Shown: positions 459 through 44,755 of the stretch, piece after piece
How positions within the stretch are numbered: position 1 is the first letter of the stretch
Layout of the letters: each line of letters opens with the position of its first letter
NCBI GenBank assembly: GCA_013115135.1
Contig: JABANP010000391.1
Span: 1-51,548 of the forward strand
Origin: Perkinsus olseni
Taxonomy: Eukaryota > Perkinsozoa > Perkinsida > Perkinsidae
Length of the DNA stretch: 51,548 nt
Reading direction: 5' to 3'
Position numbers and translations under genes: made by a program
The notes under the pieces: generated by a model
Databases searched by the model: none
Told to the model about the DNA's origin: nothing
The model's input: only the letters and a program-made list of their open reading frames with translations

Positions 459-483
459 CGCGCGCTTCGCGCGCGCCCTGACA

Positions 484-5233: not shown

Positions 5234-5253
5234 CTGTAGCCTACAGGCTGTAG
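5234..5253. repeat. 14-bp inverted-copy insertion (21 of 22 matches), site GCTGTAGG
   Basis: CTGTAG is duplicated at distance 14 around its own inverted copy. The paralogous spacer at about 27397 has a single GCTGTAGG without the insert. Confidence 0.8.
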
Positions 5254-5275
5254 GGTTGAGCCTCAACCGTTGAGG
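5254..5275. repeat. 14-bp inverted-copy insertion, W = GGTTGAGG
   Basis: Perfect 22-bp structure directly abutting the previous one. The paralogous spacer at 27397 lacks both inserts. Confidence 0.9.
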
Positions 5276-5430
5276 TCGCTTCTTCGGGAAGCTGATCGTA
5301 CTTTTCGTGCTTATGGACTGATGAGCGGTGGCTCGCCACCCACGGCGTGGGTCGCACGCGGTGCCATTTTTATTTGTATTGCGTCTGTGGTGTGGAAATA
5401 GTATCTTCTAAGTATAGTATCCTCGATACC

Positions 5431-5452
5431 ATCACCAGTGGTGATTCACCAC
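5431..5452. repeat. 14-bp inverted-copy insertion, W = ATCACCAC
   Basis: Perfect 22-bp structure in the spacer downstream of the truncated protease. Confidence 0.85.
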
Positions 5453-6243
5453 TGTCGGAGCTTCTCAATCATTATGATCAGCACTTCGTCATGGATGATC
5501 GCTCGCGGGCATGGGTTGTGCGCCGCTGGCCTATGTGAGTCTGTTTTTTCAATATTCTGTAATACGGAGTCTGTATGTCCGCGTGCCACTGTCACGCACG
5601 CATGTTTTGCCTGGGCCGGGCAATGGCCGCTTATTAGCCGACTCTACTGAAAGAGTTGCTCAAAAAACTCAGACTTTTGACTTTGACTCAGCTTCAGACT
5701 TTTGATCCGTTGTATTCGTTTTTTCAAGTCCCAACTTACACATAGCTCTTTTCTCGAGACCTTGATGGCACTGAGTCTAGTCACGGGGAGCGTACCCGAA
5801 GAACGGTACCTCCAGCTCCCACCAAAACTGAGCACATCGGTGAGCGTCCAACTGAGCCGAGTCCGGCGTCATTGGACTATAAACTCACACGCAAGAGGCT
5901 CCACAGGCTCCTACTTTATGAGAGGCTTCTTCTCAAGCTGCCGTACTGTTATTGCATTGAGACTGATGACGCCCATAACACATGGGCAGGTAGGCCGATG
6001 TTCGGGGTGACGACAGGGTGGTCATGCACAGAATTGCATTCATCGCAAAGCTTCTTACCCACCATATTCTCGCAAATAGATGTCTTCTTGGCTTGGCTGT
6101 AGGCCACCACCTGTGGTGCCAGCGAATGAATAAATTCGACGACACTGTCATCATGACAGTCTTTTCTGGCGAGACGACCTCGTTTTCACCGGGCAGTGTT
6201 AAGGGATGCAGCCGAATTCCTAGCGTCCCTCATCCAGTAGGCC

Positions 6244-6265
6244 GGGCGTTTAACGCCCGGCGTTA
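6244..6265. repeat. 14-bp inverted-copy insertion, W = GGGCGTTA
   Basis: Perfect 22-bp structure, shared with the duplicate at 24720-24741, so older than the block duplication. The more diverged spacer at about 28370 has the empty site (GGGTGTTA). Confidence 0.9.
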
Positions 6266-6355
6266 GCCGAAGCCCGATTTCCATAGTTTTCTTCTCGCTA
6301 CTTCGCGCTCCTCTTGCCAACTGCATCGTTTTCGAACCGGGATATGGTCTTTCTA

Positions 6356-6377
6356 CTCAAGAGTCTTGAGTCAAGAC
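6356..6377. repeat. 14-bp inverted-copy insertion, W = CTCAAGAC
   Basis: Perfect 22-bp structure. The insert is absent from duplicate block B (about 24846) and from the spacer at about 28471, which shows the uninterrupted site. Confidence 0.95.
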
Positions 6378-7089: not shown

Positions 7090-9697
7090 ATGATTCCTCC
7101 TCGCCCCGCTAAGGACGGGCCTTCGCATCTGGACGACGTCGCAGACGAAGACGCCTGGCTGAGATCAGTCTTCCGGGAAGAGGAGCTGGAAGCTCCCGGG
7201 CAACAGCGAGGCCCATCGTCGGAGCAGTCCGATGCAGCTCAAGATGTCGACATGGACCCTCAGCAGCGTACAACTGAAGACGCTTCCGACACTGTCATGG
7301 AGAATGTCCGTAGCAGTTGCCAGGGAGGTAAGGGGGCGGTAGAGCCGTCTGGCCAAACGGTGTCTCTCTCGGATAACCCGTGTGAGGACGGGGATCCGAT
7401 CCCTGCTCGTCGCACTGATTGGTATTCGATGTGGGATAAGGATGACCCCACTGAACTCGTTGACGCGGGGCTGGCTAAATTCAAGGGCCTACCTGCGAGT
7501 GCGTACAACTCGTCTGACGTTATGGATCTGTTAGCGGATGCGCTCGATCTATTACCGGATGAGCATCGTGCACGTGGGATTGCTGCGCTACAAGTGGTGA
7601 CTCGTCACCACCTGTACTTGGTCGAGGCTCGGACCAAAGCTAAATCCGCTAGCCCTACTGCTGGTGCCAGAGTTGGACCGGCCCATGAGGCGCCATCCTC
7701 TGTTCTGGCCCCTCCCTGCCCCACGGCTCGTGCAGCTGCTTGCGCTTCCAACGGGGCGCCATCCTCTGTTCTGGTCCCCCCGTTGCCACCCACCCGCCAA
7801 CTGATCCCCTTCCCCCCGCCACCCCCAGGTCAAAACCCCAGAGGACGATCGTGGCCGTCGCGCCTGCAGCTGGCGGCGGCAAGAGACAACGAGTTGCCGG
7901 TGGTACACCGGACCACCCCCGCAGGATCGTAACCCCGGCTCCACCGGTGCCGAAGGCGATAGCGAAAGCCAAGGCAAAGACCCCACCTGGCCCGGTAAGA
8001 GCTGCCTTGGAGAAGGCCAAGAAATCTACCAAGCGCTCTTGCGTGATTGAGCTGAGGTCGGACGACGTCGACGCTCCGGAGATGAACGCCTCGGCATTCA
8101 TGGGCTTTCGTAATCTGATCCTCGGCTTGCTGGGAAGCAGGGTGACCCTGCCAGGGTCGTCGTCAACTCCACCTTTCCACTGAAAGGAGGCATGGGTCTG
8201 GTCCTCAGCGACGACACTCAGGCCAGGGCGTGCGTGGAAGCTCTCAACCGCGCCAAGGGGTACACGGCCAAGGTCAGATCTGGCCTCTGGCCCAGGATAA
8301 TCTTGTTCAACCCTGCTGTGAACCGCGGGGTCACGATTGACCATGTCGATCGTATGATCCGGGGGACTAACCCGGACCTGGTCAAGGATATCGGGGGCAC
8401 CAGCTCATCGTCTTCATCGATGGTGAACCCCCCCGCGGCTGCGCTGGTCAGCACCATCTATTGGCGCGGCCAGCACTTGGTACTATCGGTGAACCCGATC
8501 CTCTACTCTCGACTCTCTAGTCGCGGTGAGGGAAAGGGTCACCTGGTTTTGAACCACCTGCGCACCCGTTGGGCGACTTCCAAGTCCCCCGCGGTGTGCT
8601 TCAGGTGCTGCGGCATAGGACACATCGGTCCAGCTTGCCCTCACAAGCAGGACCCGTCCAAGGTGCGTTGCACTCGCTGTGCAGCCTTCGGTCACGAAAG
8701 GCAGTCCTGCCCTGCCCAAGCAATCACTGGTCCGGTACTGAAATGTGCCAACTGCTTGGACCACAACGCAGCACTCACTGCCAGTGAGTCACTGGTACCG
8801 GGGGTCGCCGCAAGGTTGACCACGAGTGTACCGATAGTGCTTGCGAGAGCCTGGCCGCATTTGCTAAGCGGCAATGGGGTAGCAGAAGTTTGCTGGGACA
8901 AAGAAGTTAGGATCCTCAATGATGAGGTATCCTTACAAACCTTCGAGTCCAACCGGTACCACTCGTGGGTTGACCTCACTCTATTGTACGGAGCCCCCAG
9001 AGATGGCGTTGAGCCTCGATGGGGGGTGGTCGACGACCTTTGCGGGTCAGACCACAGGCTACTCTACGTTGAGTTCGGTGATCAGGAAGCGGTCCCCGCT
9101 CCAAGGCTGGCCCACCGTCTCGTAGACGTAGTCAAGGTTATCGATGGCGCCTCTCGGATTCCCCCGGATACCTCTCTCTCCGGCATCACGGAATCCTTGA
9201 GCGCCCTGGTAAAACGCTTTACGCCCAAAGCCCCGGCCCCATCTGACACCACCTGGTGGACAGGGGAGCTGTCGAGGCTGAAGGCTAAATTAAGAAGGGC
9301 CCAGCGGGCGTTCTTCCGGCACAAAAGGTTGAACGGCCCCGATGCATCATCTACGGTGCACTACCGGGGTGCCCGCGACGCTGCCGGGCGCAAGTTCAAG
9401 GCAGCCGTCAAAGAGGCCAAGAGAGTAGCCGCTCGCAGATTCTTCACTGATCTGCAGCACTACTCTCGCTGTATTAAAAGAGGCTGTCCCCGGATTCCTC
9501 CTGCCGCTATATGCGCGCATGGAGTGAATCAGGCGGACTTCCTCCTGCGGCGGCTCTTCCCTCGTGATCCCGACAGGGACACTGAGGTGGAGGCCCTACG
9601 GTTACGGCAGCGTACCGAGCCGGTGCCGGCGGTTACCTTCTCTGAACTCAGAGAGTCTCAGGCGAGGAGCTGCCCCGGGCGAGGACGACGTCAGTAA
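7090..9697 (+). pseudogene. LINE ORF1 (zinc-knuckle gag-like protein) fused to the endonuclease C-terminus by deletion
   Basis: Reading passes through three frames: 7090 to about 7850, then to 8183, then 8192 to about 9660; the first shift lies in C-rich runs near 7800-7830. The product is Pro/Ala-rich with a basic middle, then two CX2CX4HX4C knuckles (CFRCCGIGHIGPAC and CTRCAAFGHERQSC, about 8600-8715), expected to bind the element's RNA. Right after a third C-x-x-C (CANC) the sequence jumps to the end of an APE-type endonuclease (SWVDLTLLYG ... CGSDHRLLYVEF, around 8960-9075). The first three quarters of that domain, including its metal-binding residues, are missing. A linker to the reverse transcriptase follows. 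The ORF1/endonuclease joint contains a 14-bp templated insertion at 8774. Confidence 0.75.
8774..8795. repeat. 14-bp inverted-copy insertion, W = CTCACTGG
   Basis: Perfect 22-bp structure inside the LINE, at the ORF1/endonuclease fusion. It is the only exact example found within former coding sequence. Confidence 0.85.
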
Positions 9698-10997
9698 TGA
9701 CATAGTCCTCGATACGCTCGAGGTGCTAAAGGACAGCTGGTCCGTCCAGCTTACTGCAGCCCTCGAAGCTGGTGTATTCCCCCAAGAGTGGAAACACTCG
9801 AAGGGGGTGTTTATCCATAAAAGTGGCCGGGATCCAGCTCGCCCCAATGGCTGGCGTCCCATCTGCTTGGTCACTTCTGGTAGCAAGCTGTTCGAGCGAT
9901 TAATTCTCGAACGGCTCGCTTCGTGCCCGCAGATCCGTTACCGCTTGGAGTCTCCAGTGATCCACGGTTTCTGTAAGGGCAAATCGGTCGACACTGCCGC
10001 CCTGCGCATCATTAACGCGTTCAGGGCTGGCAGGAAGAGGAGTAAACGCGCACCAGTAGCTCTCATCCAGCTCGATGTGCAAAATGCGTTTCCCTCGGTC
10101 AAGCACAGCCACATTCTGGCTACCCTGGCTCGATACGACGTGCCACGATATCTTATCGACATCGTCGAGAGCTATCTCGAGGGACAGAGTGTGGCTGCTA
10201 CCTACGGCAGCGATGAGGTCACGGTGGGTTTGGAAAGAGGGGTGCCTCAAGGCAGTGCCTTAGGCCCCTTCCTGTTTTTGCTGAGCACCCTACCACTAGT
10301 CGACGCGTTTTCGGGTATGGAGGAAAAAGGCGTAAGCCTCACCCTCTACGCGGACGACACGACGGTGGTGGTGTCCGCCGGTACTGGCCCGTCGCTGGTT
10401 AAAAGGTGGCGGTCAGCAGAGGCTCTGCTGCTGGCCTGGGCTGCCGATGCTGGAGTGTCCTACGAGCCGGCCAAGAGCCAGGCGCTCCTGCCTAGGACCA
10501 TCGGGGACGATATTTTGTCCCTTGATGGAACACCCGTTGACATCGTCAAGGTTGTCCGGGTGCTTGGTGTTTTGATCGATCGGCGCTTATCGTTCCAACA
10601 CCACATCAAGGTTAAATGTGCCGAAGCCAAAGCCAAGTTAGGCAGGCTGAGGCACCTGGGCTGGGCACGTGCTGGGATCACATGCAAGAAAGTGATCAAA
10701 ACCTATAAGGTTGCGATCGTTCCTGCCCTCAGTCACGCTGTCCCAGCATGGAAGGAGGGGCTGGAGTCAGTCACAGCCAAGTCTGCCCTGCTGCAGGTCT
10801 CGGCTATGGTGGCGAGGATAGCCCTCCAAGCTCCACGGAACAGCTCCAACGCGGCACTCTGCGTCGCGGCTGGTATCTTGCCAGCAGACTTGGAGCTCGG
10901 TAGAATCGCCGCGATTGAATTTCAATCGCGGCCACCAGACTCGCTGCGCTTGGGTGCGTTACGACGCTGGACCGAACTCTCTCGGTCAAGGGCTTGA
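9655..10997 (+). pseudogene. LINE reverse transcriptase domain
   Basis: Continues the previous frame after a shift near 9655 (LRRGAAPGEDDVSNDIV). Recognisable blocks: HSKGVFIHKSGRDPARPNGW, the finger motif LIQLDVQNAFPSVKH with first catalytic Asp, GVPQGSALGPFLF, and LTLYADDTTVVV with the YADD box at 10347-10358. A thumb-like region (ALLPRTIG...VRVLGVLIDRRLSF) follows. All catalytic Asp residues are present, so the domain itself looks intact although it is not connected in frame with RNase H. It would copy the element's RNA by target-primed reverse transcription. Confidence 0.85.
10908..10932. repeat. Odd palindrome with 12-bp arms inside LINE coding sequence
   Basis: Arms 10908-10919 and 10921-10932 are exact reverse complements around a single T. 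The reading frame (AAIEFQSRPP) is open across it. Confidence 0.8.
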
Positions 10998-11995
10998 AGG
11001 TGCATGAGGGTTGCGATGGCGGTGATACAGTGCAGCGCTGGAGGGCTTTGCCCACTCAACCATGGCACCCCTGGGTCTCGACTACCATCGCGGAACGTGA
11101 GGAGGCCAAGAGCTACGCACTCGAGGCTCTCCGAACCAAGAATGCCATTTTCACGGATGGCTCGGTGGTCAAGGACGTCAAGACCGGCGCTGCAATGGTC
11201 GTTTATCGTGAGGGCGGAGAGGTCTACTCCAATTTCTGGAAGCTCTCCCCCTACGCTACTATCACGGATTGCGAACTCCTAGGAGTTCTGGAAGCAGTCC
11301 GCTGGATTGTGTCGACAGCGGGTGACGAGGCCTGGGAGATCTTCACGGACTCTCAGGCGGTACTCAAGATTCTGTCGTCCCGAGCATCCACGGCCCGATG
11401 GGATAAGGCGAGACAGATCTACCTGTCCTTGTCCGAAATCCCTGGTAGGGTATACCTTCGATGGGTACCGGGGCACAGTTCCATCAGTGCCAACGAACGG
11501 GCCGATGAGCTGGCAGCCAAGGGTGCCTCCATGAGAGAAGTCTCTGCGGAGACGGAAATCAGTGTGAGGACTCTTCGGCGGTATCAAGGAGAAGCTGGCC
11601 GTCTGTCACTGCGCAAGTGGTGGTCAGACAAGAGAGCCAGCCTGGGCACTTCTGTCAATGACTTCTTTTACTGCGCTTCACACGCTCGTTTGTGGATCCG
11701 CGGGGAGGTCACGGCAGCTAGCAGTGCCGTTGTATTCGGAAGGGCCCCAACCCCAGCCCATCTCTATAGATGCGGGGTGGTCAACTCGCCAGAGTGTGAC
11801 TGTGGGGCGCCGGTGGGGAACACGCGGCACTACCTCCTCTCCTGTCCGCTCCTGCAGCAGGCTAGGAATAGGGTCAAAGGTGGTGTCCCCTACCATTTAT
11901 ATAAACTAATTGTTGATTTGAAGCGACGCAAGTCCTTCAATCAACTTTGTTCGGCTCTCATGCAGTATCTCGATGCTCGCAGGGGCTTATTGTAG
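10994..11995 (+). pseudogene. LINE RNase H domain and C-terminal Cys/His motif
   Basis: The frame differs from the reverse transcriptase ORF, so a shift near 10970-10990 separates them; translation here starts from no clear ATG. Catalytic pattern of RNase H: IFTDGSVV, CELLGVLEA, IFTDSQAV and ADELAAKGA preceded by VPGHSS. The tail carries HLYRCGVVNSPECDCGAP...TRHYLLSCPL, a Cys/His knuckle found at the end of several RNase H-bearing LINE clades. The stop codon TAG (11993-11995) lies inside the 8-bp target-site duplication of the next inserted element. Confidence 0.85.
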
Positions 11996-11997
11996 TG

Positions 11998-12859
11998 GGG
12001 ATGTTCACGTTTCGTACACCAAATAGTCGTACATTTTCGACTCATGTCTCCAATACTCATACACTTCCTAATCGTACACGAAATACTCGTACACCGAATA
12101 GTCATACACAAAATACTCATACACGAGAGATTCGTACATCTAAAACTCGTATACATGATGCTCGTATACGTAATACCCGTACATGTAACACCCGTACACA
12201 TAATAGTCGTACACTTTCAACTCGTATACCAGCATTTCATACACTTTTATTTCGTACACAACCCCAGTTTCAAGTCGTACACCGTCGTCTCGTACACTCC
12301 GCGAAAATTTTATAGGCAAGTCGCGGAGCTGCTCCGCGACTTGCCTAAAAATTTTCGCGCCGGCTCCGCCAGGCGCTCTCGCGCCCCTTAATGCCACTCT
12401 GCTTCCTCCCTGGTAAGGGAGTCCCTGCACATAGGTTCGAGCCTGAGGTCTTCCGATCGAAAGTCCGCTACTTTAACCACCATATCACTCACACTAACAA
12501 GCTTTTTCTCACAGAGTGGCGCGAACAGTTCGCTCCCTATAGAAAATATAACTTCCTTCGCTCCGTCATTGCACCCAGCGCGCGGTCCAAAAATGCGACG
12601 CAGCAAGCATGGTGTACGAGTCGTCCTCGTGTACGAGTTGTCAGTGTATGAGATTCACGTGTACGAACTTTAAGTGTACGACTTACTACATGAACGAGTA
12701 TTATATGTACGAGTATCATGGGTACGAGGATTACGTGTACGAGTCTCAAGTGTACGAAATGACGATGTATGAATCCGATGAGTAAACGAGTATTCAGTGT
12801 ACGAGCCGTGTACGAAGCGATAGTGTACGGGCTTTCGGTGTACGAATCGTAATACGCCC
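11998..12859. mobile_element. Terminal-repeat-array (foldback/MITE-like) DNA element, copy 1 (862 bp)
   Basis: Flanked on the left by TTGTAGTG (11990-11997), which recurs after copy 2 (13462-13469). Ends are imperfect inverted repeats of about 26 bp: GGG...ACG.TTCGTACACC and its complement. The left 300 bp is an array of CGTACAC words spaced by 8-20 bp. The right 250 bp (12612-12859) is an array of the complementary GTGTACGA words. The core has a one-base-centre palindrome (12313-12347) and about 250 bp of non-coding sequence with a B-box-like GGTTCGAGCCT (about 12433). I see no transposase, so it is non-autonomous. The 8-bp TSD fits hAT- or Mutator-type enzymes. Confidence 0.8.
12313..12347. 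repeat. Odd palindrome in the element core, 17-bp arms extended to about 28 bp with one bulge
   Basis: Arms 12313-12329 and 12331-12347 pair perfectly around T12330. Pairing continues outward to about 12300 and 12359 with one extra base on the left. It is deleted from copy 2. Confidence 0.85.
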
Positions 12860-12864
12860 TAGTG

Positions 12865-13461
12865 GGGATGTTCACGTTTCGTACACCAAATAGTCGTACA
12901 TTTTCGACTCATGTCTCCAATACTCATACACTTCCTAATCGTACACGAAATACTCGTACACCGAATAGTCATACACAAAATACTCATACTTAATGCCACT
13001 CTGCTTCCTCCCTGGTAAGGGAGTCCCTGCACATAGGTTCGAGCCTGAGGTCTTCCGATCGAAAGTCCGCTACTTTAACCACCATATCACTCACACTAAC
13101 AAGCTTTTTCTCACAGAGTGGCGCGAACAGTTCGCTCCCTATAGAAAATATAACTTCCTTCGCTCCGTCATTGCACCCAGCGCGCGGTCCAAAAATGCGA
13201 CGCAGCAAGCATGGTGTACGAGTCGTCCTCGTGTACGAGTTGTCAGTGTATGAGATTCACGTGTACGAACTTTAAGTGTACGACTTACTACATGAACGAG
13301 TATTATATGTACGAGTATCATGGGTACGAGGATTACGTGTACGAGTCTCAAGTGTACGAAATGACGATGTATGAATCCGATGAGTAAACGAGTATTCAGT
13401 GTACGAGCCGTGTACGAAGCGATAGTGTACGGGCTTTCGGTGTACGAATCGTAATACGCCC
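12865..13461. mobile_element. Terminal-repeat-array DNA element, copy 2 (597 bp, internal deletion)
   Basis: Tandem to copy 1 across a 5-bp TAGTG remnant of the target duplication (12860-12864). Its first 124 bp and the core and right arm (from TTAATGCC at about 12989) repeat copy 1 with almost no differences. A 265-bp segment, including the large palindrome and most of the left array, is missing. The near-identity indicates a recent tandem duplication or double insertion. Confidence 0.85.
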
Positions 13462-13698
13462 TTGTAGTGCCGGGCAGGCACAACTTTTTTTGCCTCTGTT
13501 TTGTACGAGGCCCACCATTGAATATTTGCTATCAAAAAAATAAAAACAGCAGCAGCGGGAGGAAGCGTCGGACGACTGGCGACTGGGACGGTGACCGCGA
13601 GGATGGAGGAAGATGCAGAGGAAGTCGGTCGAAGCCTTAGAGCAGGAAGACGTGATGACTAATTCATGTATTGCTCGTTATTAAGGAACGTTTCAATC
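13462..13698. other. Remainder of the LINE 3' UTR
   Basis: Starts at the second TTGTAGTG copy. Contains an A-rich stretch (about 13533-13550) and no gene, and ends at the 15-bp target-site duplication. Confidence 0.6.
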
Positions 13699-13700
13699 TG

Positions 13701-13722
13701 ACGAGTGTCACTCGTCGAGTGA
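13701..13722. repeat. 14-bp inverted-copy insertion, W = ACGAGTGA, later split by the LINE
   Basis: Perfect 22-bp structure at the right LINE junction. Duplicate block B (about 25510) has the empty site. The LINE target duplication (13699-13713) lies partly inside the inserted bases, so the 14-bp insertion came first. Confidence 0.95.
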
Positions 13723-13763
13723 GGAAAAGGTTGACATGTAGCTTCTGGCCAGCGGTTGAAGCC

Positions 13764-14127
13764 TGTTGCTTCTCCGTTGTTGCTCATAGTCAACGCAAGG
13801 CGAGAAGGAGTATGAAGTCTTCTACCTTCTGCTTCTAAGCTTAGTCTCTCGAGGGGAATAAGCTATGCACGCATGCACAAGACGATCGGCGCATGATGAG
13901 TAACACTTTCCCCTCCGAGTAGAGAAGTATGAGATGTTGAGATGAAAAAGGAGAGAAGTAAAGAGTGATGAGGGATTCACCAGTTGTTGCTTCTCCGTTG
14001 TTGCTCATAGTCAACGCAAGGCGAGAAGGCGTATGAAGTCTTCTACCTTCTGCTTCTAAGCTTAGTCTCTCGAGGGGAATAAGCTATGCACGCATGCACA
14101 AGACGATCGGCGCATGATGAGTAAACA
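13764..14127. mobile_element. MITE-like insertion containing two copies of a 140-bp repeat
   Basis: Absent from duplicate block B, where the site GGTTGAAGCCACTG is continuous. Here the insert is flanked by AAGCC (13759-13763 and 14128-14132). Two copies (13764-13904 and about 13984-14125) of a structured repeat begin TTGTTGCTCATAGTCAACG and end GCATGATGAGTAA, with ends that are weak inverted repeats (GTTGCTCAT / ATGAGTAAC). Further copies occur at 31552-31692 (minus) and in a TMTC intron (about 38941-39051). Non-coding. Confidence 0.75.
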
Positions 14128-14132
14128 AAGCC

Positions 14133-15718: not shown

Positions 15719-16605
15719 TTGACGGCTTGGGTGAGGGTCTAGAACTCCCCAGTCACCGAAATACTATATATCTTTTCTTCTGTCATGTTTCGAGATCTGC
15801 AACTGAGCGCTTGGCGTGCTGCTCCTACTGGCACTCACGCTCCCTTTGGGGGACCGAACTCTGCCTCTAGTTGCTTCTTCACCTCTACTGTGGACTCTGT
15901 TTTTGTAAACGATCCAGTTTCCTCGAGCGTCACCTTATGCTTGAGAACCACGACAACGCTTTTGGGGTCGACACCGCTCCACTACGAAGCTGATCGTGCT
16001 TGTCGTGGGTGACGCAGCCTCGTACAGGAGGCTGCCACCCATCGATAATCACTCTGCGCATGAAGTCCACTGTCAGAGCATATCAATGAAGACCGTTCAG
16101 TATTGATCATCGTTCATGGGTATAGGCTATTCGACGGTGGCCGATATGAGTCTTTCTTTCAACACTCTATGTGTTTGCGTGGTACTGTGTAACACGTTCG
16201 TTTTGCCCGGGCCGGGCAATGGCCGTTTCACTAGTCAAGTCTCTGGAAGGGGTGTATCGAAGAAGTTCCTATTTTTTCTTCGTTGTACTACTCGCCAGAA
16301 TGACTCGATCATCAGCTGTGTCCCGATTTACACTTCAATGTCACGAGATCAAGCCCAGACAGCACTTTTCTCGACACCTTGATGGCACTGAGTTAAGTTA
16401 CTGTCCTTCAGTCCCGGGCGAGTACCCCCACCACCACGATGAGCCTCCATTACTGAGCCGACGCTGCCGTCATCGGACTATGCAGAAACAAGAGAGGCTC
16501 CACAGCCTCCTACGATGTATGAGGGCCTCATAACGATGTATGAACTGCTCATGAAGATAAATGATGTCAGTGTCAAACTCCAACAAAAGGTAGTGACCCT
16601 TTCGA
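15719..16605. other. Protease-downstream spacer, diverged copy
   Basis: Homologous to the spacers at 5021 and 27153 (GTTTCGAGATCTGC, GGCGTGCTGCTCC, TTTTGCCCGGGCCGGGCAATGG at about 16202). No gene. It ends in a 22-bp direct tandem duplication (about 16586-16629, AAGGTAGTGACCC...) immediately before the hAT remnant. Confidence 0.7.
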
Positions 16606-17409
16606 ATGAAGGTAGTGACCCTTTCGAATGAAGTTTCTCTATTGGTTGGACTGGGAGACAGGGTCCGCGAGCTTAAGCAAGAGTGGCAAATGATTTGTCG
16701 CCGTGCAGGAGAGATCGCTAACGACCTGGAGATAAATGCGGATTTCGACTCTGCCTATATCAGGATGCACAGGCGACTGAGGAGCAGCAGAGAAGCACTG
16801 GATCCGGAGGTCACCTGCAACTTTTTCAAAAGCTCCGTTTTCGAACGTACTTTAGATGTATGTGCAGAACGTTCAGATGAGAGATTTGTGGCTATCCGTT
16901 CTATAGAACAGCGATTCAACGTTCTTTGGCGCTTCGGCACCGTAGGAGTGAGTGAGATTGAGCAGGCCGCGAGAGAACTCGCGGCTCATTATGGCCAGGA
17001 TGGCATTAGTGCCAGAGAGTTGGCGACAGAACTGCAGGTAGCTCAAGAAGGAATCGACGGCGAAGAGATCTCTGTCGATGGATCAACTTGCCCCTTGCGT
17101 CTACTCAACGTGCTCAAGAGAGACGGCCTCTGTGAAGCTTTCTCTCAGCTCACCCTCCTACTGAGACTTTATTTGACGATCCCGGTCGGTGTAGCGTCAG
17201 CAGAACGAGCCTTCAGCAGGATGTCTTTCATCAAGAATAAATTCCGGTCTACAACCAGCAAAGAGAGATTGAATGGGTTGTCCTTGATTGCCATCGAGAA
17301 TGATGTTGCTAATAGTCTGTCATACGGTGATCTCCTGCGAGACTTCGCGGAAAAGAAGGCCAGACGCATACCGATAGGCGTGCAGCTTACTGATCATGCC
17401 GTGGACTGA
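16606..17409 (+). pseudogene. hAT-family transposase, C-terminal remnant (267 aa)
   Basis: Open frame whose last 90 residues are the hAT dimerisation domain: LRLYLTIPVGVASAERAFSRMSFIKNKFRS followed by RLNGLSLIAIENDV. The upstream part (coiled-coil-like, VRELKQEWQMICRRAGE) resembles the region just before that domain in ZMYM1/TTF-type hAT proteins. The DNA-binding zinc finger and the first two catalytic Asp regions are missing, so the gene is 5'-truncated. The ATG is simply the first in frame. It probably derives from an old hAT insertion between two protease units; no terminal repeats were found. Confidence 0.75.
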
Positions 17410-18290
17410 AGTTGATTGTAGCCAGTACGTGCTAAACGCACAGTGCTACTAGTTTTGCATGGACTGCTATGCTTGTGAAACTCAACAGGTATTTGCGTTT
17501 ATCATTCACGGTGGTAGATTTGCACATCATCAGGGGCCCCAGGATCGGCCTACTGTTTCAGGGCCCCGGTGGCCAAAATCAGTGTAGCGGCGCCAGTGGC
17601 GCCGCGCCACTGATTAGGCCTTTGCTTTCGAGCTCCCGGATCGTTATCGCGATAAGACTGATGAATTTCCGGAACGGGAACGGTGCGGCGCTCCTTCCCG
17701 GGTTTCCCCCGGACGTGGGAATTCCCGTGAAGTATGCGCGTCCTAAACGGCGTCCTAATCGATTAGAAAATTTAGTAATTTTTGGGGTTTTTGAGGCTTT
17801 CTGATTCGACACATTTCCACTAGAGTATCACAGTCACTGTGACACAGTGATAGTCGATTCTTCAATTTGACGCTCTCATATGTCTACGAAGTCGGGGATC
17901 GATGAATTATTCATTCGCCAGTTTCTCATTTTTGATCGTCAATTCCATCTTCCCGTTCGTCGTCAATCCCTCCCTCTCGTCTTCGATTTCTGAGTCGGGC
18001 CAAACATCGCTGAGAAAGTAGACTGTGATGAGACCGAAGACTGTCTCATAGATGACCCGCTTCCCTCTCGTGTAGGGATGCGCATCTCTGTTGCTACTGG
18101 TATCTCAGCTGGTGTTCGACGTCCCCGCCGTTACTGGTCGTCAGGTAGGGTCTGTGGCGTGCGCAGGTCTGGCGCCCTGGATATCCTATGGGACGGCTCC
18201 GAAACGGCTGGCTGTGAAACTGTCCGAGTTGATGATGCCGAATTTAAAGTGTTGCGATGAGTTGCATGCTCAGTATTATTCCGTATATAA
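17410..18290. other. Gene-free stretch with hairpins
   Basis: No ORF with coding character. Contains a stem (17578-17616, AATCAGTG...CGGCGCC/GGCGCCG...CACTGATT) and a 14-bp templated insertion at 17828. Short ORFs near 18078-18297 resemble no protein I know. Confidence 0.5.
17828..17849. repeat. 14-bp inverted-copy insertion, W = TCACAGTG
   Basis: Perfect 22-bp structure in gene-free DNA. Confidence 0.85.
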
Positions 18291-18312
18291 TCCGTAGCCA
18301 TCTTGGCTCAAG
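18291..18312 (+). other. Spliced-leader-like sequence (dinoflagellate/perkinsid SL), relict
   Basis: These 22 bases match the trans-spliced leader consensus DCCGTAGCCATTTTGGC..AAG at 21 of 22 positions (C instead of T at position 12). An SL RNA gene should continue with a GT splice donor; here AC follows, so this is not a normal SL gene. A GGGTTTTTGCG stretch 10 bases downstream resembles an Sm site weakly. A relict SL fixed in the genome is what remains when a trans-spliced mRNA is reverse-transcribed and reinserted. I do not recognise the sequence that follows, so the donor mRNA is unknown. Confidence 0.75.
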
Positions 18313-19320: not shown

Positions 19321-19379
19321 TGATTCTTTTCACTATTTTCCAGAGTTTTGTCTCAAGTACCGTTTATCACGATCCAGTA

Positions 19380-21195: not shown

Positions 21196-21253
21196 CCATA
21201 GTATGAGTCATACTGACCGCGAGCCCGCAACCAGCACGTAATGAGTTAGTTGA

Positions 21254-21274
21254 GCTCAGGCCCTGAGCCTCAGG
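21254..21274. repeat. 14-bp inverted-copy insertion (21 of 22), site GCTCAGG
   Basis: Exact except the last flanking base (A instead of G). Confidence 0.8.
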
Positions 21275-21402
21275 AGTGAGACTGCGCAGACTCTTGACTG
21301 ACTGCTAAGGTATCTTCTACTCCCATGGGGGTTCTTCTTGTCGTAAACACAAAATTTCGCTAGCGATGGCGGTTGACCACTCGTGGTGACAGGGCCTGTG
21401 TC

Positions 21403-21424
21403 AAGGAAGGCTTCCTTAGGAAGC
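21403..21424. repeat. 14-bp inverted-copy insertion, W = AAGGAAGC
   Basis: Perfect 22-bp structure. Confidence 0.85.
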
Positions 21425-22567: not shown

Positions 22568-22589
22568 GGACAGGACCTGTCCGACAGGT
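22568..22589. repeat. 14-bp inverted-copy insertion, W = GGACAGGT
   Basis: Perfect 22-bp structure, upstream of the protease at 22951. Confidence 0.85.
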
Positions 22590-22753: not shown

Positions 22754-22863
22754 ATCGCAACTTGTGATTCACAAGGATCTGACAGTGCCAAGTTGGCACT
22801 CGGGTTGGCACTGCCAACCCCAGCGGTTGAACCGCTCACGAGGGTTGGACCAACCCGGTTGGT
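22754..22863. repeat. Run of consecutive one-base-centre hairpins upstream of a protease gene
   Basis: Within 110 bp: CTTGTGA/TCACAAG, AGTGCCAA/TTGGCACT, GGGTTGGCA/TGCCAACCC, AGCGGTT/AACCGCT, and the exact 14-bp insertion structure at 22842-22863 (W = GGGTTGGT). The first and fourth are single-mismatch versions of the same insertion structure read on the other strand. The block ends 87 bp before the ATG. Confidence 0.85.
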
Positions 22864-24423: not shown

Positions 24424-24445
24424 GACTGATCATCAGTCACTGATG
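24424..24445. repeat. 14-bp inverted-copy insertion, W = GACTGATG
   Basis: Perfect 22-bp structure; the empty site is present in block A at about 5961. Confidence 0.95.
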
Positions 24446-24719: not shown

Positions 24720-24741
24720 GGGCGTTTAACGCCCGGCGTTA
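24720..24741. repeat. 14-bp inverted-copy insertion, W = GGGCGTTA (duplicate of 6244)
   Basis: Same structure as in block A, inherited through the block duplication. Confidence 0.9.
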
Positions 24742-24789: not shown

Positions 24790-24811
24790 TTGCCAAGTTG
24801 GCAATGCCAAC
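24790..24811. repeat. 14-bp inverted-copy insertion, W = TTGCCAAC
   Basis: Perfect 22-bp structure; block A (about 6314) has the empty site. Confidence 0.95.
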
Positions 24812-25509: not shown

Positions 25510-26089
25510 TGACGAGTGAGGAAAAGGTTGACATGTAGCTTCTGGCCAGCGGTTGAAGCCACTGATCTTTGATGCAGGGCAAGGCCGACACCAGTACGGA
25601 AGAGAGGACGTCACGACAGCAGCGAGGGTAACACGAAGGCAAACTTTTCTCAGGTCGAAAACTCGGACGGCCGACGACCGTCTGCTGGACTCGCCGTCAA
25701 GCATTAGACGGCTCGAGCATGGTGTTCTGGCACTAGCCTGCTAGCGTGGGAGGCACAACTGGGACACGGCGTATCCTCGTTTGCGTACTACATATCATTG
25801 CCTCTCTTCGCACCGCTTTTAACCTAGATGAACTACTCGTTCACCCGCCGGAAAAAGTTCTTGTGCGCGACTCGGACCGTATAGTGCAATATAGTAAAGA
25901 GCATCTTTACTGCTCAGTAACCACCAGTGACTCGTATCGTTATGAGCACTAGCGCTAGCGCTATAGCATTCACGGCGTGAATTTCACGCTATACATCACC
26001 TTGTCGCCCTAACTCCTCTCGAGTCCCCCTTCTCACCTTCTTCGAGCGTTGTCTCCAGGTTTGCAGTAGTGACCTCCATTTGAACAGTC
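25510..26089. other. 5' flank of the protease pseudogene at 26090
   Basis: Homologous to 13714-13763 plus 14133-14650. No gene. It preserves the pre-insertion state for the LINE, for the 14-bp insertion at 13701 and for the MITE pair. Confidence 0.7.
25968..25989. repeat. 14-bp inverted-copy insertion, W = ATTCACGC
   Basis: Perfect 22-bp structure about 100 bp upstream of the ATG at 26090. The otherwise identical flank of the intact gene (about 14542) has the empty site. Confidence 0.95.
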
Positions 26090-28330: not shown

Positions 28331-28352
28331 TTCCTAGGCTAGGAATCCTAGC
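28331..28352. repeat. 14-bp inverted-copy insertion, W = TTCCTAGC
   Basis: Perfect 22-bp structure; both block A (about 6217) and block B (about 24697) show the empty site. Confidence 0.95.
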
Positions 28353-28378
28353 GTACCTAATCGAGCGGGCCGGGTGTT

Positions 28379-28400
28379 AGTGGAACTTCCACTGTGGAAG
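28379..28400. repeat. 14-bp inverted-copy insertion, W = AGTGGAAG
   Basis: Perfect 22-bp structure; blocks A and B have a short, diverged empty site (AGCCGAAG). Confidence 0.9.
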
Positions 28401-28869
28401 CATCAGTCGTTTTTCCCTCGCAACTTCCCTTGTCAACTCCATTGCTTTGGGGCCGGGCTGCGGTCTTTCTACTCAAGACGTTCCTCCATGATCTACGGTA
28501 AACCGGCGGGTTTAAGCTGCTACCGATGCAGCTAACACAGTTATGATGCAATTCACTCCCCGATGGCGAGTAGCATTGGGTTGGAGGAGACCAAGATGGA
28601 TGGTCGAAAGAAAGAGCTCCACAGCAATATTCTGAGATCTTTGAACTGTTGACCTGCTAGTAGTACTAGCCTAATATGAACGCATTTCTGCCATGTTCAC
28701 GGAGCGCACCTTCTGAACAACAGAGTGTGAATTCTCTAGGCACAGAAACGCCTTATAAAGCCAAATGATCGACAGTTGCGCGTCTCGCTGTGCGGGGGCG
28801 GCGGCGCTAGTCCAATGAGTGGCTAAGCTTGGAGGGGAGCTCCTGTGACGTCGAATATTGATTTGGCCC

Positions 28870-28890
28870 TACTGGCCCAGTAGTACTGGC
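28870..28890. repeat. 14-bp inverted-copy insertion (21 of 22), site CTACTGG
   Basis: Exact except the last flanking base. Confidence 0.8.
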
Positions 28891-30841: not shown

Positions 30842-30863
30842 GCCTTAGTCTAAGGCCCTTAGA
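30842..30863. repeat. 14-bp inverted-copy insertion, W = GCCTTAGA
   Basis: Perfect 22-bp structure, overlapping another odd palindrome (GGCTCAGA/TCTGAGCC) just upstream. Confidence 0.85.
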
Positions 30864-40835: not shown

Positions 40836-43515
40836 ATGTCCCTTCCGATCGTCGCATGCCGACCGCACACTCTCATTCCGATCAACGATGAGTCTGTCAC
40901 CTACGTCCACATCAACCGGGACGACGACCAGCCCTCTTCGGTGCCGTGCTCTTTCACGGTCACTGTAGCGTATGAGTCCGCTCTGGTACAACTTTTCAAG
41001 TACTACTCAGCCGACAACAAGGAGGAAGGTCGACGTTATGTTATCACGGAAGGCACTGACCTCCGAGTTCCGGTATCCGCTCGAGAACTACGGAAGTTGG
41101 GAGGGTCCTATCAGGCTACTATTGCCCTCAATCATCAGGGCCTGATATTCGCAGGCTATGAAGGGCTCGGGGCACGCGTCTTCAGTAGACGCGGTAAGGA
41201 CACCAAATGGCGAGGCGTTACGGCTGCCAGAATTATGACCGACATTATGGACGCTCAGTTTTGGACTCTACCGGACGGCAGAACACGGGTGCTGGCGACA
41301 GCAGCTCCGTGGAAAGGTGGCGCCGTTTCGGATGACTCTAAGCGAGAAGGATGGTTCAAAGTGTACGAGTTGGAGCATCACCCCAAGTCCATCGCTGTCC
41401 GCACCATTCTCGAGGTGAAGTTCTCGGGCGAGACTCCGAATGCATTGGCTGGGGTCCCTTCGTGTAGTTCTGCTGTGCCGAGTGGCTGCACGTCACGTCA
41501 AGTGCTGGTCGGTGACACAGTGAGCGTCGCCCTCTCCCTATGCTCCTCTAACCCGGCCGTTTGCTTATACGGTATTTCACACACGGACGATCACCAGTTG
41601 GTTAGCACTGCTTTGATACGGGTGGATACGCCATCACCTATATCGTGCCTGTGCCTGTCCCCCAGGCCTCCAGCACTTGGCGGGCACCGGTGATGGCGGC
41701 TCTATTCACGTGTGGAATCTAGGCCTGATAGAAGTTGCTGTGACTGCCCCGGGCTGGCTCGATGCGCTGCAGGAGAAGGGTCTCGAGTGCGTCACGTGGC
41801 TGAGTTCGACGAAACTGGTGGTCGGCGGCGAAGGTGATTGGCTGGGCCTCTACGAGTTCACGCAACCCAATGTCTTGGATCTTATCTGTCGCTTCAAGCA
41901 TTCCGGCTACTCGTCTGTTACTAGCGGGCTAGCCTATTGCCCCCCCTCTGATGACGTCTTAGCCAAGGACCCAACTGGACGCGAACACGCCGAGGAAGGT
42001 ATGTGGATAGCCGATAGCAGCTTCGGATTGCTCCTATCGGGAGGCGAAGACTTCTACATCACTTCTCATGCACTGGGTTTGCGTCGGAGACATCTATCTG
42101 ATGAAACTGTCTATGTAGCTGAAGAGGAGCATCTCCTTGACTGGTCGAGGCCCCAGCGAAGCGTACTTCTCGGCCCGGGAAATCCAAGCCCTACCACCTC
42201 CGATTCGGGCGCTGGGGATCTCACATCTCGGGGGAGCAAGGTTAGCAAACCGACATCGTCGGCCAACCTGCCTGGCAACCACAAGGGTAGCGTGGACCTA
42301 TTGCATTCCACCAATGACTGCCGTGTGAAGACGGAGGAGCTCTACTGCCAGCCTGCTGTAGTGAGAGTGACGGCAGCGCACGCCCCTCAGGCTTCCAGGA
42401 GCTCCGCACTCAGCGAGCTGTGCGAGACCATTGTGGCAGAGGTTGTTGCCTTTGATGATGAGGACGGTTCTGGCCGGACGGTGGACTCGGTGACCACTGG
42501 CGACTTGTTTCCACCTACGGATCACTGGCCAAACCGGAAAAGGCTCAGGAAGAGTCGCCGTAGCTCTGCCAGCGGGCGTGGTTCGCCCCCGTCCTCATCT
42601 TCCCACGGTGACTCTAACGCTTACCCGATAATCGTACAAGAGAGCCCTGAAGCCGATAATCCGCGCTGTTCCACTGGTGATAGCCGCATGCCGAGGGAGG
42701 GTGCTCGGGGTCTTTTTACTGATGAGAGCGGCGACGAGGGGAGGCGGAAGCGTAAACGTAGTGAGTCGTCAATTACGGGGCGCGTGAGGAGGAGGCGCAG
42801 GCTCAAGCGCGCTGCCGCGGTTGTGGAGATAAGCGACGATTCTTCTGATGGCGGGCAAGAGCCGGGCTTCCCTTCCACGCGGGGCGCTTGCGGTCCTCAG
42901 TTGGGTCCTACTAGATTGACTAGAATACAAGTCGACTCCGATGTTGAACCTCCGCGGCCATTTTCGGATCGTACGGGCCTCGCGGATGAGAGCAGTTCGA
43001 AGGCGAAAGGTGCTGAGGTCACACTGAACGCGATCGAGCTACCTATGCTATCCGCTATAAGGTCGTTGGAGGACCAGGCTCTCAGGGATTGGTTGAAGAC
43101 CAATCAAGAATTACTCGACGACGCCAGGAGATGGCGCAACGTTCATCCCAGCTTCAAAGTGCGGAGTCGCTTTGGTAATCTCCTCCAGTTGTTATCGGAT
43201 GAGGTCAAGCGGCGTGGAACGAGGAGGGGTCAAGATTGGGGTCATTACGCTGAACCAGAGCCTGTATCGTGGCATCAACCAGATCCTGCCTGTGAGGGCG
43301 GAGATGAGGTCACTGGAGCTGCGGGCGATGGTGGTCCACCCTCTCGGATGAGCGAGGACACTGCTCGGCCACTGGATGGTGGTGCCGCTCATCAACGCCC
43401 TGCTAACGATGACTTCGTGTTGCACTCTTCCCCCAGTCAAATGAGACGATCAGATGAAGCTTTGGTAATCATGGGCCTGGTATCGGTTATGCACTGTATG
43501 TGGGTGGTCGATTGA
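40836..43515 (+). CDS. WD40-like protein with a long charged, Ser/Arg-rich tail; one frameshift
   Basis: The frame beginning at ATG 40836 reads through beta-propeller-like blades (YQATIALNHQGLIFAGYEGLGARVFSRR, ISCLCLSP). It then breaks in a C5 run (41659-41663). With four C the sequence would read SPGLQHLAGTGDGGSIHVWNL, a textbook WD40 repeat ending, and the next frame is open to 43515. So a one-base error or indel splits one gene of about 890 codons. After another blade (LECVTWLSSTKLVVGGEGDWLGLYEF) comes a disordered nuclear-type region: basic clusters RKRKRSE and RRRRRLKR, an acidic SIM-like VVEISDDSSD, and a helical segment near residue 460 of the second part (LEDQALRDWLKTNQELLDDARRW). Function unknown; nuclear scaffolding is a guess. 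Confidence 0.65.
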
Positions 43516-44146
43516 TAAGCTTCGTACCATATCGATACTCAACGCCACGGATTCTGCATTCAGGTTGGCGTTCCTACTGCATCGTCGGAGCGATGTCCCG
43601 AGCCTCCACCCAATAGCGAGGACAAAGCGCAAGCCCAGCCGCTGGCCGGCACGCCCCCTCCGATACCGTCCGAATATCTGTGGTACTCCGCGGAACAAGC
43701 GCTCGGTTGGAGCGATGAGAGCAATCATGACCCTTCAGAGAATGCAGGAGACCAGGTGCGTACAGGAGGGCTAACCGTTAGCTGCTGACGTAAGAATGAC
43801 TGAGTCACTCGCCATTTCGGTTTTACTATCGGTAGTTTTCGAGAATAGAGTGGACGTGGTACTTAAGATCGCACGTATGGGGCACAATGAATGAAATCGG
43901 AAAATCATTATGCCATAGTGTTGACCGCTTTTGCATTCTCAATCATCGGTGATGGAAACAATGCCCAATGACTTCAACCTAGGTTTTCATCGTCGGACTT
44001 TGACCGTGAACCCAATGATTCCACGGTGCTCTCATGAAGAGATTCTTCATGGGAATTTTCGTCAGCTTTACAATTCTCAGCGCAGTTGGTAACTGCGTTG
44101 TCTGATCTACTGCAATGCTGACTCGTTCCGCAGCGAGTCATCGGCC

Positions 44147-44223
44147 AAGAAAGAGCCCCACACAGCGGAGTCCACAGAGGTTCACAGCGTGAACCTCTCG
44201 CGTCGACGCGTGGGTGTGGGCTC
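44147..44223. repeat. Nested stem-loop, 77 bp
   Basis: Outer arms GAGCCCCACAC / GTGTGGGCTC, an inner hairpin AGAGGTTCAC-AGC-GTGAACCTCT and a palindromic CGCGTCGACGCG. The right arm with CTCGAACCC looks superficially like a tRNA T-arm, but no tRNA can be folded. Confidence 0.6.
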
Positions 44224-44341
44224 GAACCCATCGGCTCCACATTGCTTCAAAGAATGCATAAGGAGATTTGTTTCGTCGGTCCATCTGGGCGAAAGCTTCT
44301 CTCCGATACGTTTTTCGGACGTCGTCTCCTGAACTCCTATA

Positions 44342-44363
44342 CTGTTATGATAACAGTGTTATC
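44342..44363. repeat. 14-bp inverted-copy insertion, W = CTGTTATC
   Basis: Perfect 22-bp structure, far from the protease array. Confidence 0.85.
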
Positions 44364-44733
44364 CCACCTCGACGTTGTACGTAACGTGCACTTGCGAAGA
44401 TTCGACCGATTCAGCCTATCTTGCCGGGGGATGCATCGTGCCTTATACACGATGGTCTCATTTGAAGTCCACACTCTCAATGAGCCACGCTAGTGCATAG
44501 TTTTCCAATGAGATTTGCGCTGGATATGAGGGTATGGTTCAATCAACATAGCCGTGTACCATCTCTGGTCCGCATCACACAGACTTAACGCCGTAACAGT
44601 TACGGTGTAACCGAAGGCCTGTCATGCTTATGGTATAAGCAAGTAGCAAGAATGTGGCTTGTATTCCCCACATAAACCCCGCACATCAATCATTGTCGAA
44701 CTGCCAGCGTGGTAGGTGTGCACAGTTCGCAAG

Positions 44734-44755
44734 TGAAAGCCGCTTTCAGAAAGCG
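44734..44755. repeat. 14-bp inverted-copy insertion, W = TGAAAGCG
   Basis: Perfect 22-bp structure. A single-mismatch example (CCGTAAC) lies 150 bp upstream near 44590. Confidence 0.85.

What the first reader, a model, noticed from the sequence alone, without database searches (positions are those of the whole stretch)
5234..44755. Recurrent 14-bp self-templated insertions obeying one exact rule (W(1-7), rcW, W(2-8))
At 20 places a perfect 22-bp structure occurs in which an 8-bp site W is replaced by its first seven bases, the full reverse complement of W, and its last seven bases. The net insertion is always 14 bp: a 6-bp direct duplication around an inverted 8-bp copy of the local site. Exact starts (W): 3146 GTGGTCCC, 5254 GGTTGAGG, 5431 ATCACCAC, 6244 and 24720 GGGCGTTA, 6356 CTCAAGAC, 8774 CTCACTGG, 13701 ACGAGTGA, 17828 TCACAGTG, 21403 AAGGAAGC, 22568 GGACAGGT, 22842 GGGTTGGT, 24424 GACTGATG, 24790 TTGCCAAC, 25968 ATTCACGC, 28331 TTCCTAGC, 28379 AGTGGAAG, 30842 GCCTTAGA, 44342 CTGTTATC, 44734 TGAAAGCG. 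Three more (5234, 21254, 28870) fit 21 of 22 bases. The rule fixes 14 bases, so chance expectation is about 51548/4^14, or 0.0002. The W sites share no sequence, so the insert is made from the local site and is not a fixed element. The constant 8/6/14 geometry suggests an enzymatic or replication-fork mechanism: a two-step strand-switch of 8 nt, or a 6-nt staggered cut followed by inverted copying. I know of no described element with this signature.
Basis: partly seen in the sequence, partly recalled or inferred. Interest (0 to 1): 0.97.

Follow-up and report, generated by a model that had tools for sequence, protein, structure and literature searches.

The report
Uniform 14-base scars of jumping genes
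This genome, likely that of a Perkinsus shellfish parasite, is dotted with 14-base insertions that all obey one exact rule; they are likely scars left where hAT "jumping genes" cut themselves out and the cell rejoined the ends in nearly the same way each time, and at one site the predicted scar was found where a related copy still carries the jumping gene.

Summary
The window holds 25 perfect W(1-7)+rcW+W(2-8) structures against 0.0002 expected; no other arm geometry comes close. A 171-kb sample of the same genome holds 36. Paralogs without the insert have W and are 14 bp shorter. W is best read as the 8-bp target-site duplication of hAT transposons: flank hairpins with a 1-nt offset, opened and annealed through their complementary 8-nt tails, give exactly this 22-mer. 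Support: 21 hAT transposase matches, one in the window; hAT MITEs with 8-bp duplications; W shows the hAT preference nTnnnnAn; damaged MITE ends carry half scars whose hidden eighth base is confirmed in empty copies. Scars predicted for 42 MITE ends were sought; at one site, C67 with TSD CACCCAAC, paralogs on C198 (perfect) and C532 (one base deleted) carry the prediction. So these are hAT excision footprints. New is their near-uniform form and abundance. Which hAT family made most of them, and what fixes the 8-nt arm, are unknown.

The parts
3146..3167 (.). scar, W=GTGGTCCC
   Evidence: perfect 22/22
5233..5254 (.). scar with 1 mismatch, adjacent to 5254
   Evidence: reader gave 5234
5254..5275 (.). 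scar, W=GGTTGAGG
   Evidence: perfect
5431..5452 (.). scar, W=ATCACCAC
   Evidence: perfect
6244..6265 (.). scar, W=GGGCGTTA, shared with 24720 through a segmental duplication
   Evidence: perfect; duplicated flanks
6356..6377 (.). scar, W=CTCAAGAC; paralog at 24846 is empty
   Evidence: perfect; empty copy
   Evidence: perfect
8774..8795 (.). scar, W=CTCACTGG, inside the ORF 8192-9697
   Evidence: perfect; ORF position
13701..13722 (.). scar, W=ACGAGTGA
   Evidence: perfect
16518..16532 (+). half scar (W1-7 TATGAGG + rcW GCCTCATA) at the broken left end of a hAT copy; W=TATGAGGC
   Evidence: paralog L063 lacks the hAT copy and reads TATGAGGC
16533..17612 (+). hAT copy with a broken left end (a few filler bases follow the half scar); right end CACTG, followed by 7 bases matching W2-8 with one mismatch (17613-17619)
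   Evidence: absent from paralog L063
16606..17409 (+). ORF with hAT C-terminal dimerisation domain
   Evidence: PF05699, E=2e-07; 81% identity to a P. olseni protein
   Evidence: perfect; empty copy
17828..17849 (.). scar, W=TCACAGTG
   Evidence: perfect
   Evidence: perfect
21254..21275 (.). scar with 1 mismatch
21403..21424 (.). scar, W=AAGGAAGC; empty in paralog L062 (contig C823)
   Evidence: perfect; empty copy
   Evidence: perfect
22568..22589 (.). scar, W=GGACAGGT
   Evidence: perfect
22842..22863 (.). scar, W=GGGTTGGT
   Evidence: perfect
   Evidence: perfect; paralog has 3 mismatches
24424..24445 (.). scar, W=GACTGATG; paralog at 5962 is empty
   Evidence: perfect; empty copy
24720..24741 (.). 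scar, W=GGGCGTTA (duplicate of 6244)
   Evidence: perfect
24790..24811 (.). scar, W=TTGCCAAC; paralog at 6314 is empty
   Evidence: perfect; empty copy
25968..25989 (.). scar, W=ATTCACGC; paralog at 14548 is empty
   Evidence: perfect; empty copy
28331..28352 (.). scar, W=TTCCTAGC
   Evidence: perfect
28379..28400 (.). scar, W=AGTGGAAG
   Evidence: perfect
28869..28890 (.). scar with 1 mismatch
   Evidence: reader gave 28870
30842..30863 (.). scar, W=GCCTTAGA
   Evidence: perfect
44342..44363 (.). scar, W=CTGTTATC
   Evidence: perfect
44734..44755 (.). scar, W=TGAAAGCG
   Evidence: perfect

Best explanation
Each structure is likely the repaired scar left when a hAT DNA transposon, which had duplicated the 8-bp site W on insertion, cut itself out again; at one site paralogs carry the exact predicted scar (one perfect, one with a base deleted) where another copy still holds the transposon. 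Steps: (1) insertion duplicates W (shown for hAT MITEs). (2) The transposase cuts 1 nt outside the element and seals each flank into a hairpin, so the left flank reads w1-w7 then w8'-w1' and the right flank, on the other strand, w8'-w2' then w1-w8 (hAT chemistry known from other hosts; here inferred from the two scar junctions and from half scars at damaged elements, whose hidden w8 was confirmed). (3) Each hairpin is nicked about 8 nt from its tip, near the outer edge of W, giving 3' tails rcW and W (inferred; the nuclease is unknown). (4) The two complementary 8-nt tails anneal, a 7-nt gap is filled on each strand, and ligation gives W(1-7)+rcW+W(2-8) (inferred). The net gain is therefore 14 bp whatever the sequence of W.
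For: The rule follows from hAT geometry alone: 8-bp duplication, 1-nt offset hairpins, and TSD tails that are complementary over 8 nt. hAT transposase: PF05699 in the window at 16606-17409, one of 21 genome matches over the cut-off. MITEs with TIR CAGGGTGGCTGAA: 7 of 15 copies with both ends located have perfect 8-bp duplications, two of the 7 being duplicates of one site. Filled and empty copies differ by exactly 14 bp with the empty site W: 29 of 160 scars that could be compared (166 found, <=1 mismatch) had an empty copy among held sequences; 9 of these 29 are copies in one tandem array. Most direct: predicted scars for 42 MITE ends were sought (20, 22). At the C67 site (TSD CACCCAAC, MITE intact) the paralogs on C198 (22/22) and C532 (one base deleted) read CACCCAA GTTGGGTG ACCCAAC. 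Half scars: an odd palindrome abuts 4 of 6 MITE ends that lost their terminal CA, and 1 of 40 intact ends (Fisher p=0.0004); a fifth damaged copy, L050, fits on reading by hand. The palindrome centre predicts the hidden w8; empty copies show the predicted C for L088 (1 copy), T for L093 (3 of 3) and T for L050 (1 contiguous copy). 105 unique perfect scar sites match T2/A7 80 times of 210 against 52+-6.3 from local 8-mers, 0 of 5000 trials as high; Hermes prefers nTnnnnAn (PMC10368747, passages). Ds footprint palindromes are centred on the complement of the base next to the element (PMC5873905, passages), as here.
Against: Only one site shows element and scar in homologous copies, and its two scar paralogs look like one ancestral event. 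Seven other MITE sites have an empty, pre-insertion homolog, and two had none. The TSDs of this MITE group do not show the T2/A7 preference (20 of 72), so another hAT family may have made most scars, and it was not identified. Perfect scars far outnumber intact MITEs: 36 against 1 convincing MITE in the same sample. hAT footprints elsewhere are often heterogeneous (28 types among 128 clones in Candida, PMC5873905; but 11 of 17 alike in one Arabidopsis study, PMC1978519), so the uniformity needs a host factor that is not identified. The classical plant type (p=1, q=1) is at shuffled level, 5 against 5, while other short forms exceed it, such as (3,0) 12 against 0 and (1,0) 50 against 22, so shorter footprints or ordinary short tandem repeats may coexist. 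At L050, 3 of 4 homologs carry 8 extra bases within the site, and at L049 homologs differ at w1.
Confidence: 0.92

Rival explanations
1. Replication or repair template switching: a polymerase jumps to the other strand for 8 nt and back, with no transposon involved.
For: Such switches make local inverted insertions in general (recalled). The two junctions alone could be written as two jumps.
Against: Switch lengths should vary; only the 8/1 geometry is strongly enriched among the arms and offsets scanned. It does not predict the hAT-like target preference, half scars at damaged hAT ends or a scar at a site occupied by a hAT MITE in a paralog.
Confidence: 0.03
2. A transposase or nuclease cuts W directly, without an element ever being present or after aborted integration, and the ends are repaired through hairpins.
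For: Scars are far more numerous than intact MITEs found; 7 of 8 MITE sites with a homolog show an empty site, not a scar.
Against: The C67 site carries a full MITE with its duplication while its paralogs carry the scar. Half scars flank real elements.
Confidence: 0.08
3. Excision of another superfamily with an 8- or 9-bp duplication, such as the MULE-type element at about 187-3082 of the window.
For: A MULE domain matches below the Pfam cut-off, between 22-bp inverted repeats at 187-208 and 3061-3082; the MULE Muta1 has 8- or 9-bp duplications (PMC5225508, passages).
Against: With duplications present, most Muta1 excisions were precise (PMC5225508). No 9-bp geometry appears here. The element at the scar site has hAT ends.
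Confidence: 0.02
4. Assembly or sequencing artefact.
For: None found; reads were not available.
Against: Scars are shared by paralogs (6244 and 24720), occur in graded states of decay, lie in 14 of 20 sampled stretches and have empty counterparts in the same assembly.
Confidence: 0.01

Closest known systems
Ac/Ds (hAT) excision footprints in yeast, Candida and plants (PMC5873905, PMC1978519, passages read)
   Same: Palindromic P-nucleotides centred on the complement of the base next to the element; hairpin opening followed by microhomology joining.
   Different: In Candida, palindromes are short and outcomes varied (28 types in 128 clones); in one Arabidopsis study 11 of 17 footprints were alike but short. 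Here the recognisable scars nearly all retain the complete 8-nt arm, so the whole duplication is inverted between two 7-bp arms.
Hermes and TcBuster hAT elements (PMC10368747, PMC3499496, passages read)
   Same: 8-bp duplications; nTnnnnAn preference for Hermes; excision insertions complementary to flanking DNA for TcBuster.
   Different: No uniform 14-bp footprint is described in the passages read.
mPing and other Tourist MITEs with TSD-microhomology repair (PMC4561436, passages read)
   Same: Complementary target-site ends dictate a largely uniform repair product.
   Different: mPing is PIF/Harbinger with 3-bp staggered cuts in the duplication and restores the empty site; here hairpins intervene and a scar remains.
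Ds element flanked by a hairpin-derived inverted repeat in Arabidopsis (PMC1978519, passages read)
   Same: Host-derived inverted repeat proposed to form next to the element by hairpin opening, like the half scars at L049, L050, L052, L088 and L093.
   Different: That repeat is 598 bp; here the arms are 6-8 nt and relate to the duplication.

Membership tests
hAT transposon excision footprint | 8-bp target-site duplication of the source element | tested here: met
   Perfect 8-bp TSD in 7 of 15 MITE copies with both ends located and in all 10 sites chosen for the homolog test; scar unit W is 8 bp
hAT transposon excision footprint | hAT transposase in the genome | tested here: met
   21 PF05699 matches over the cut-off, one in the window
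hAT transposon excision footprint | Element ends begin CA(G) | tested here: met
   CAGGGTGGCTGAA ends; hAT TIR consensus CA given in PMC4423477
hAT transposon excision footprint | Hairpin palindrome centred on the complement of the base next to the element (1-nt offset) | tested here: met
   Both scar junctions; hidden w8 confirmed at L088, L093 and L050 by empty copies
hAT transposon excision footprint | Footprint at a site that held the element | tested here: met
   One site: C67 occupied, C198 and C532 scarred; 7 other sites had only empty homologs, 2 had none
hAT transposon excision footprint | Target preference nTnnnnAn (Hermes type) | tested here: inconclusive
   Met for 105 scar sites (80 of 210 against 52 expected); not seen for 36 MITE insertion sites (20 of 72)
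hAT transposon excision footprint | Hairpin intermediate observed biochemically | not testable with these tools
   Needs a bench assay
Template-switch mutation | Variable switch length (recalled) | tested here: not met
   Only the 8/1 geometry is strongly enriched
MULE excision footprint | 8- or 9-bp duplication with mostly precise excision | tested here: not met
   No 9-bp geometry; precise excision reported for Muta1

The most novel reading that the evidence does not exclude
In this lineage hAT excision is repaired by a programmed sticky-end reaction: after the transposase seals the flanks into hairpins, an enzyme, perhaps the transposase itself measuring its 8-bp target stagger, nicks each hairpin at the duplication's outer edge, so that the two 8-nt tails always match and one stereotyped 14-bp scar results. 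The genome thereby keeps a nearly lossless, sequence-independent ledger of thousands of past jumps.
Probability: 0.5. Interest if true: 0.85.

Novelty: new variant of a known kind. Interest (0 to 1): 0.75.

Why it matters
hAT footprints are often heterogeneous and hard to recognise once the element has gone. Here the outcome is so uniform that a simple pattern recovers past excisions from sequence alone, at about 210 perfect scars per Mb in the sample. That makes jump history, target choice and decay directly countable in one genome, and it poses a sharp question: what opens the hairpin 8 nt from its tip? It also warns that short palindromes scattered through such genomes, and frameshifts of 14 bp, can be transposon scars.

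Tried and rejected
Other geometries: arms 4-13 with offsets 0-4 in the window and arms 5-12 with offsets 0-5, at least five bases per arm, in the sample and in the 64 kb of hAT loci gave no second strong class; the (10,3) hits are shadows of (8,1), and single hits such as (12,5) in the hAT loci were not pursued. Classical short hAT footprints (p=1, q=1) were at shuffled level, 5 against 5; other short classes exceeded one shuffle, (0,0) 210 against 68, (1,0) 50 against 22, (0,1) 45 against 15, (3,0) 12 against 0, and were not resolved from ordinary short tandem repeats. Second-order nested scars: none. The first TIR/TSD search gave 11 candidates with 8-bp direct repeats, of which only L024 was convincing; 6- and 7-bp repeats gave 38 and 18, so the rest look like chance. 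A flank search for homologs of MITE sites gave five sites with a copy lacking the MITE, for two of which only one flank was compared, and empty copies of a repeated flank. Predicted scars for the second set of 22 MITE ends gave none; partial matches there (C435, C651, C603) are the empty copies L105, L112 and L113. Searches scored only 40 candidates each, so further pairs may have been missed. Loss of end joining as the cause of uniformity was not supported: a weak Ku match (28 bits) and an SNM1/Pso2-type match exist. In one search pattern matches without MITE-like inner sequence were dropped before the 4-of-6 and 1-of-40 counts. The T2/A7 test uses a recalled hAT motif, later found in PMC10368747; G1 and C8 were added after seeing the counts. 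Close scar pairs were not pursued. A TMTC protein gave only 41% to P. olseni, so kinship was judged from the aspartyl protease. No paper describing this scar was recognised in the listings or in the passages read; most subscription papers are not in that library, and Yu 2004, Huefner 2011 and Lazarow 2012 were seen only as cited. PMC3260210 held none of the terms sought.

Full report
What was checked. The 22-mers W(1-7)+rcW+W(2-8) are exact at all 20 coordinates, and five more perfect ones exist. The rule fixes 14 bases, so 0.0002 are expected; 25 are seen. Among the geometries scanned, only arm 8 with offset 1 is strongly enriched; the two (10,3) hits share 12 of 14 constraints with it, and small excesses occur at loose geometries, such as (5,1) 6 against 0.8. 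Degraded copies follow: 14, 11 and 25 at one, two and three mismatches against means of 0, 0.3 and 1.3 in three Markov shuffles, with some of the last class being shifted shadows of perfect ones. A 50-kb E. coli stretch has none at 0-2 mismatches and two at three.

Whose genome. The window is contig C325 of an unnamed 61.5-Mb assembly in 968 contigs. An aspartyl protease is 94% identical to Perkinsus olseni and 74% to P. marinus; hAT proteins match P. olseni at 68-81%; a TMTC protein reaches only 41%. I call it Perkinsus, closest to P. olseni. In 20 further stretches (171,370 bases, about every fiftieth contig) there are 36 perfect scars in 14 stretches, 12 of them in one. Scaled up this is about 12,900 (Poisson 9,000-17,900), but the scatter is clustered, so the interval is too narrow.

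Filled and empty. 166 scars with at most one mismatch (110 perfect) lie in held sequence; the flanks of 160 could be compared. Paralogous pairs fall mainly into two classes, gap 8 (empty, 126 pairs) and gap 22 (filled, 91 pairs); 13 pairs have gap 6, 7 have -6, 5 have 9, 10, 21 or 23, and longer gaps, as far as the cut output shows, come from one tandem array (L035) and one window pair. 29 scars have an empty copy and 28 a filled one. Nine of the 29 belong to the L035 array at about 80% identity. In the 126 empty pairs the 8 bp equal W in 36, differ by one base in 31, by two in 58 and by four in one. In the window, 24424, 24790 and 6356 are filled where the 18-kb-distant duplicate is empty, while 6244 and 24720 share a scar, so scars formed both before and after that duplication. 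The change is a clean 14-bp difference around W.

The source. An ORF at 16606-17409 carries the hAT dimerisation domain, one of 21 genome matches. The one convincing element with an 8-bp duplication in the window and sample is a 576-bp MITE beginning CAGGGTGGCTG at L024:4319-4894. Twenty stretches with its relatives were fetched: 15 have both ends located, 7 with perfect 8-bp direct repeats (two of them duplicates of one site), the rest damaged, mismatched or palindromic. hAT transposases of other hosts seal the flanks into hairpins, for Kat1 mostly 1 nt from the terminal repeat (PMC4763223, passages). Writing that out with an 8-bp duplication gives a left tail ending rcW and a right tail ending W; they are complementary, and annealing plus gap filling yields precisely W(1-7)+rcW+W(2-8).

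Tests of that idea. (a) Target preference: 105 unique perfect scars have T at position 2 or A at position 7 in 80 of 210 slots against 52+-6.3 for local 8-mers, 0 of 5000 trials as high; adding G1 and C8, chosen after seeing the counts, gives 156 against 105+-8.8. Hermes prefers nTnnnnAn (PMC10368747). Against this, 36 insertion sites of the CAGGG MITEs score 20 of 72, about chance. (b) Half scars: among MITE ends, an odd palindrome abuts 4 of 6 that have lost the terminal CA, and 1 of 40 intact ends (p=0.0004). W1-7 is followed by 7-9 bases of hairpin sequence in L049, L052, L088 and L093; L050 fits on both sides by hand reading. The hidden eighth base is the complement of the palindrome centre; homologous empty sites show the predicted C at L088 (one copy), T at L093 (three of three) and T at L050 (one contiguous copy; three others carry 8 extra bases there). 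At L049 homologs agree at w8, but w1 differs. (c) The window's own hAT copy has TATGAGG+GCCTCATA at its broken left end, and the paralog without it reads TATGAGGC. (d) Predicted scars of 42 MITE ends were built and sought (20, 22). At one site, contig C67 with the MITE in TSD CACCCAAC, two paralogs carry the prediction: C198 reads CACCCAAGTTGGGTGACCCAAC, 22 of 22, and C532 the same with one base deleted. Of ten MITE sites with both flanks, seven have an empty homolog, one the scar, two none found.

How it likely works. Shown: a 14-bp difference at W, hAT elements with 8-bp duplications, half scars with the offset base, one occupied/scar pair. Inferred: that most scars come from hAT excision, that hairpins are opened about 8 nt from the tip, and that tails anneal. 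Fixed opening is suggested because half scars stop at about 6-9 nt and because two rare variants keep whole tails without annealing: L024:871 is W1-7+rcW+rcW+W2-8 and L024:4098 has 8 and 6 nt. If hairpins were opened at random distances, longer remnants would be expected; with so few cases this is a lean, not a proof. Annealing alone could also trim longer tails to 8. Rare (6,0) and (4,0) forms, at L017:535, L024:2248 and L007:1196, fit end trimming.

Place among known things. Ds footprints in Candida, yeast and Arabidopsis show the same junction chemistry (PMC5873905, PMC1978519; passages), with 28 types among 128 Candida clones, yeast palindrome arms up to 20 nt, and 11 of 17 footprints alike in one Arabidopsis study. 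In rice, 8 of 94 excisions of DNA transposons of several superfamilies were perfect and the rest carried deletions or filler (PMC4423477, passages). I recognised no description of a genome in which nearly all recognisable scars have one complete form in the listings and passages I saw. Recognition here depends on the full form, so irregular footprints may be undercounted; the (p,q) scan lowers that worry for longer palindromic types only.

Verdict. Real, striking, and best explained as hAT excision footprints with unusually uniform repair. The element family behind most scars, the hairpin nuclease, and the spread beyond this genome remain open.

Noticed in passing
window 187-3082: MULE-type element: 22-bp terminal inverted repeats (ATCCCAACTCATACAGTTYAAA) around ORFs, one with a sub-threshold MULE domain match; no clear duplication seen by eye.
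   Followed up: partly
window 7090-11995: Retrotransposon-like ORFs; 9564-10997 has a reverse transcriptase and 10994-11995 an RNase H domain. Scars at 8137 and 8774 lie within this region.
   Followed up: no
L118:555/576 and window 5233/5254: Two scars exactly 21 bp apart, so their 8-bp sites overlapped by one base before insertion; eleven neighbouring pairs lie 21-48 bp apart, which hints at local re-insertion.
   Followed up: no
L024:871 and L024:4098: Variant scars with both hairpin tails kept: W1-7+rcW+rcW+W2-8, and an 8+6 form.
   Followed up: partly
L035 (contig C650): A one-mismatch scar (W=CTGGTAGG) is present in nine copies of a tandem repeat.
   Followed up: no
window 14651-30447: Family of aspartyl protease genes and partial copies.
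   Followed up: no
window 13760-13905 and 31551-31696: 146-bp inverted repeats, 92% complementary, 17.6 kb apart.
   Followed up: no
window 12052-13359: 15-bp minisatellites inside a 602-bp direct duplication.
   Followed up: no
window ORFs: Only 2 of 25 perfect scars (8774, 24018) lie in 20 long ORFs that cover 39% of the window, p=0.0005. Two opposite-strand ORFs of the 22 listed were left out; one of them (7655-8344) contains 8137. A deficit is partly expected because a 14-bp gain breaks frames.
   Followed up: partly
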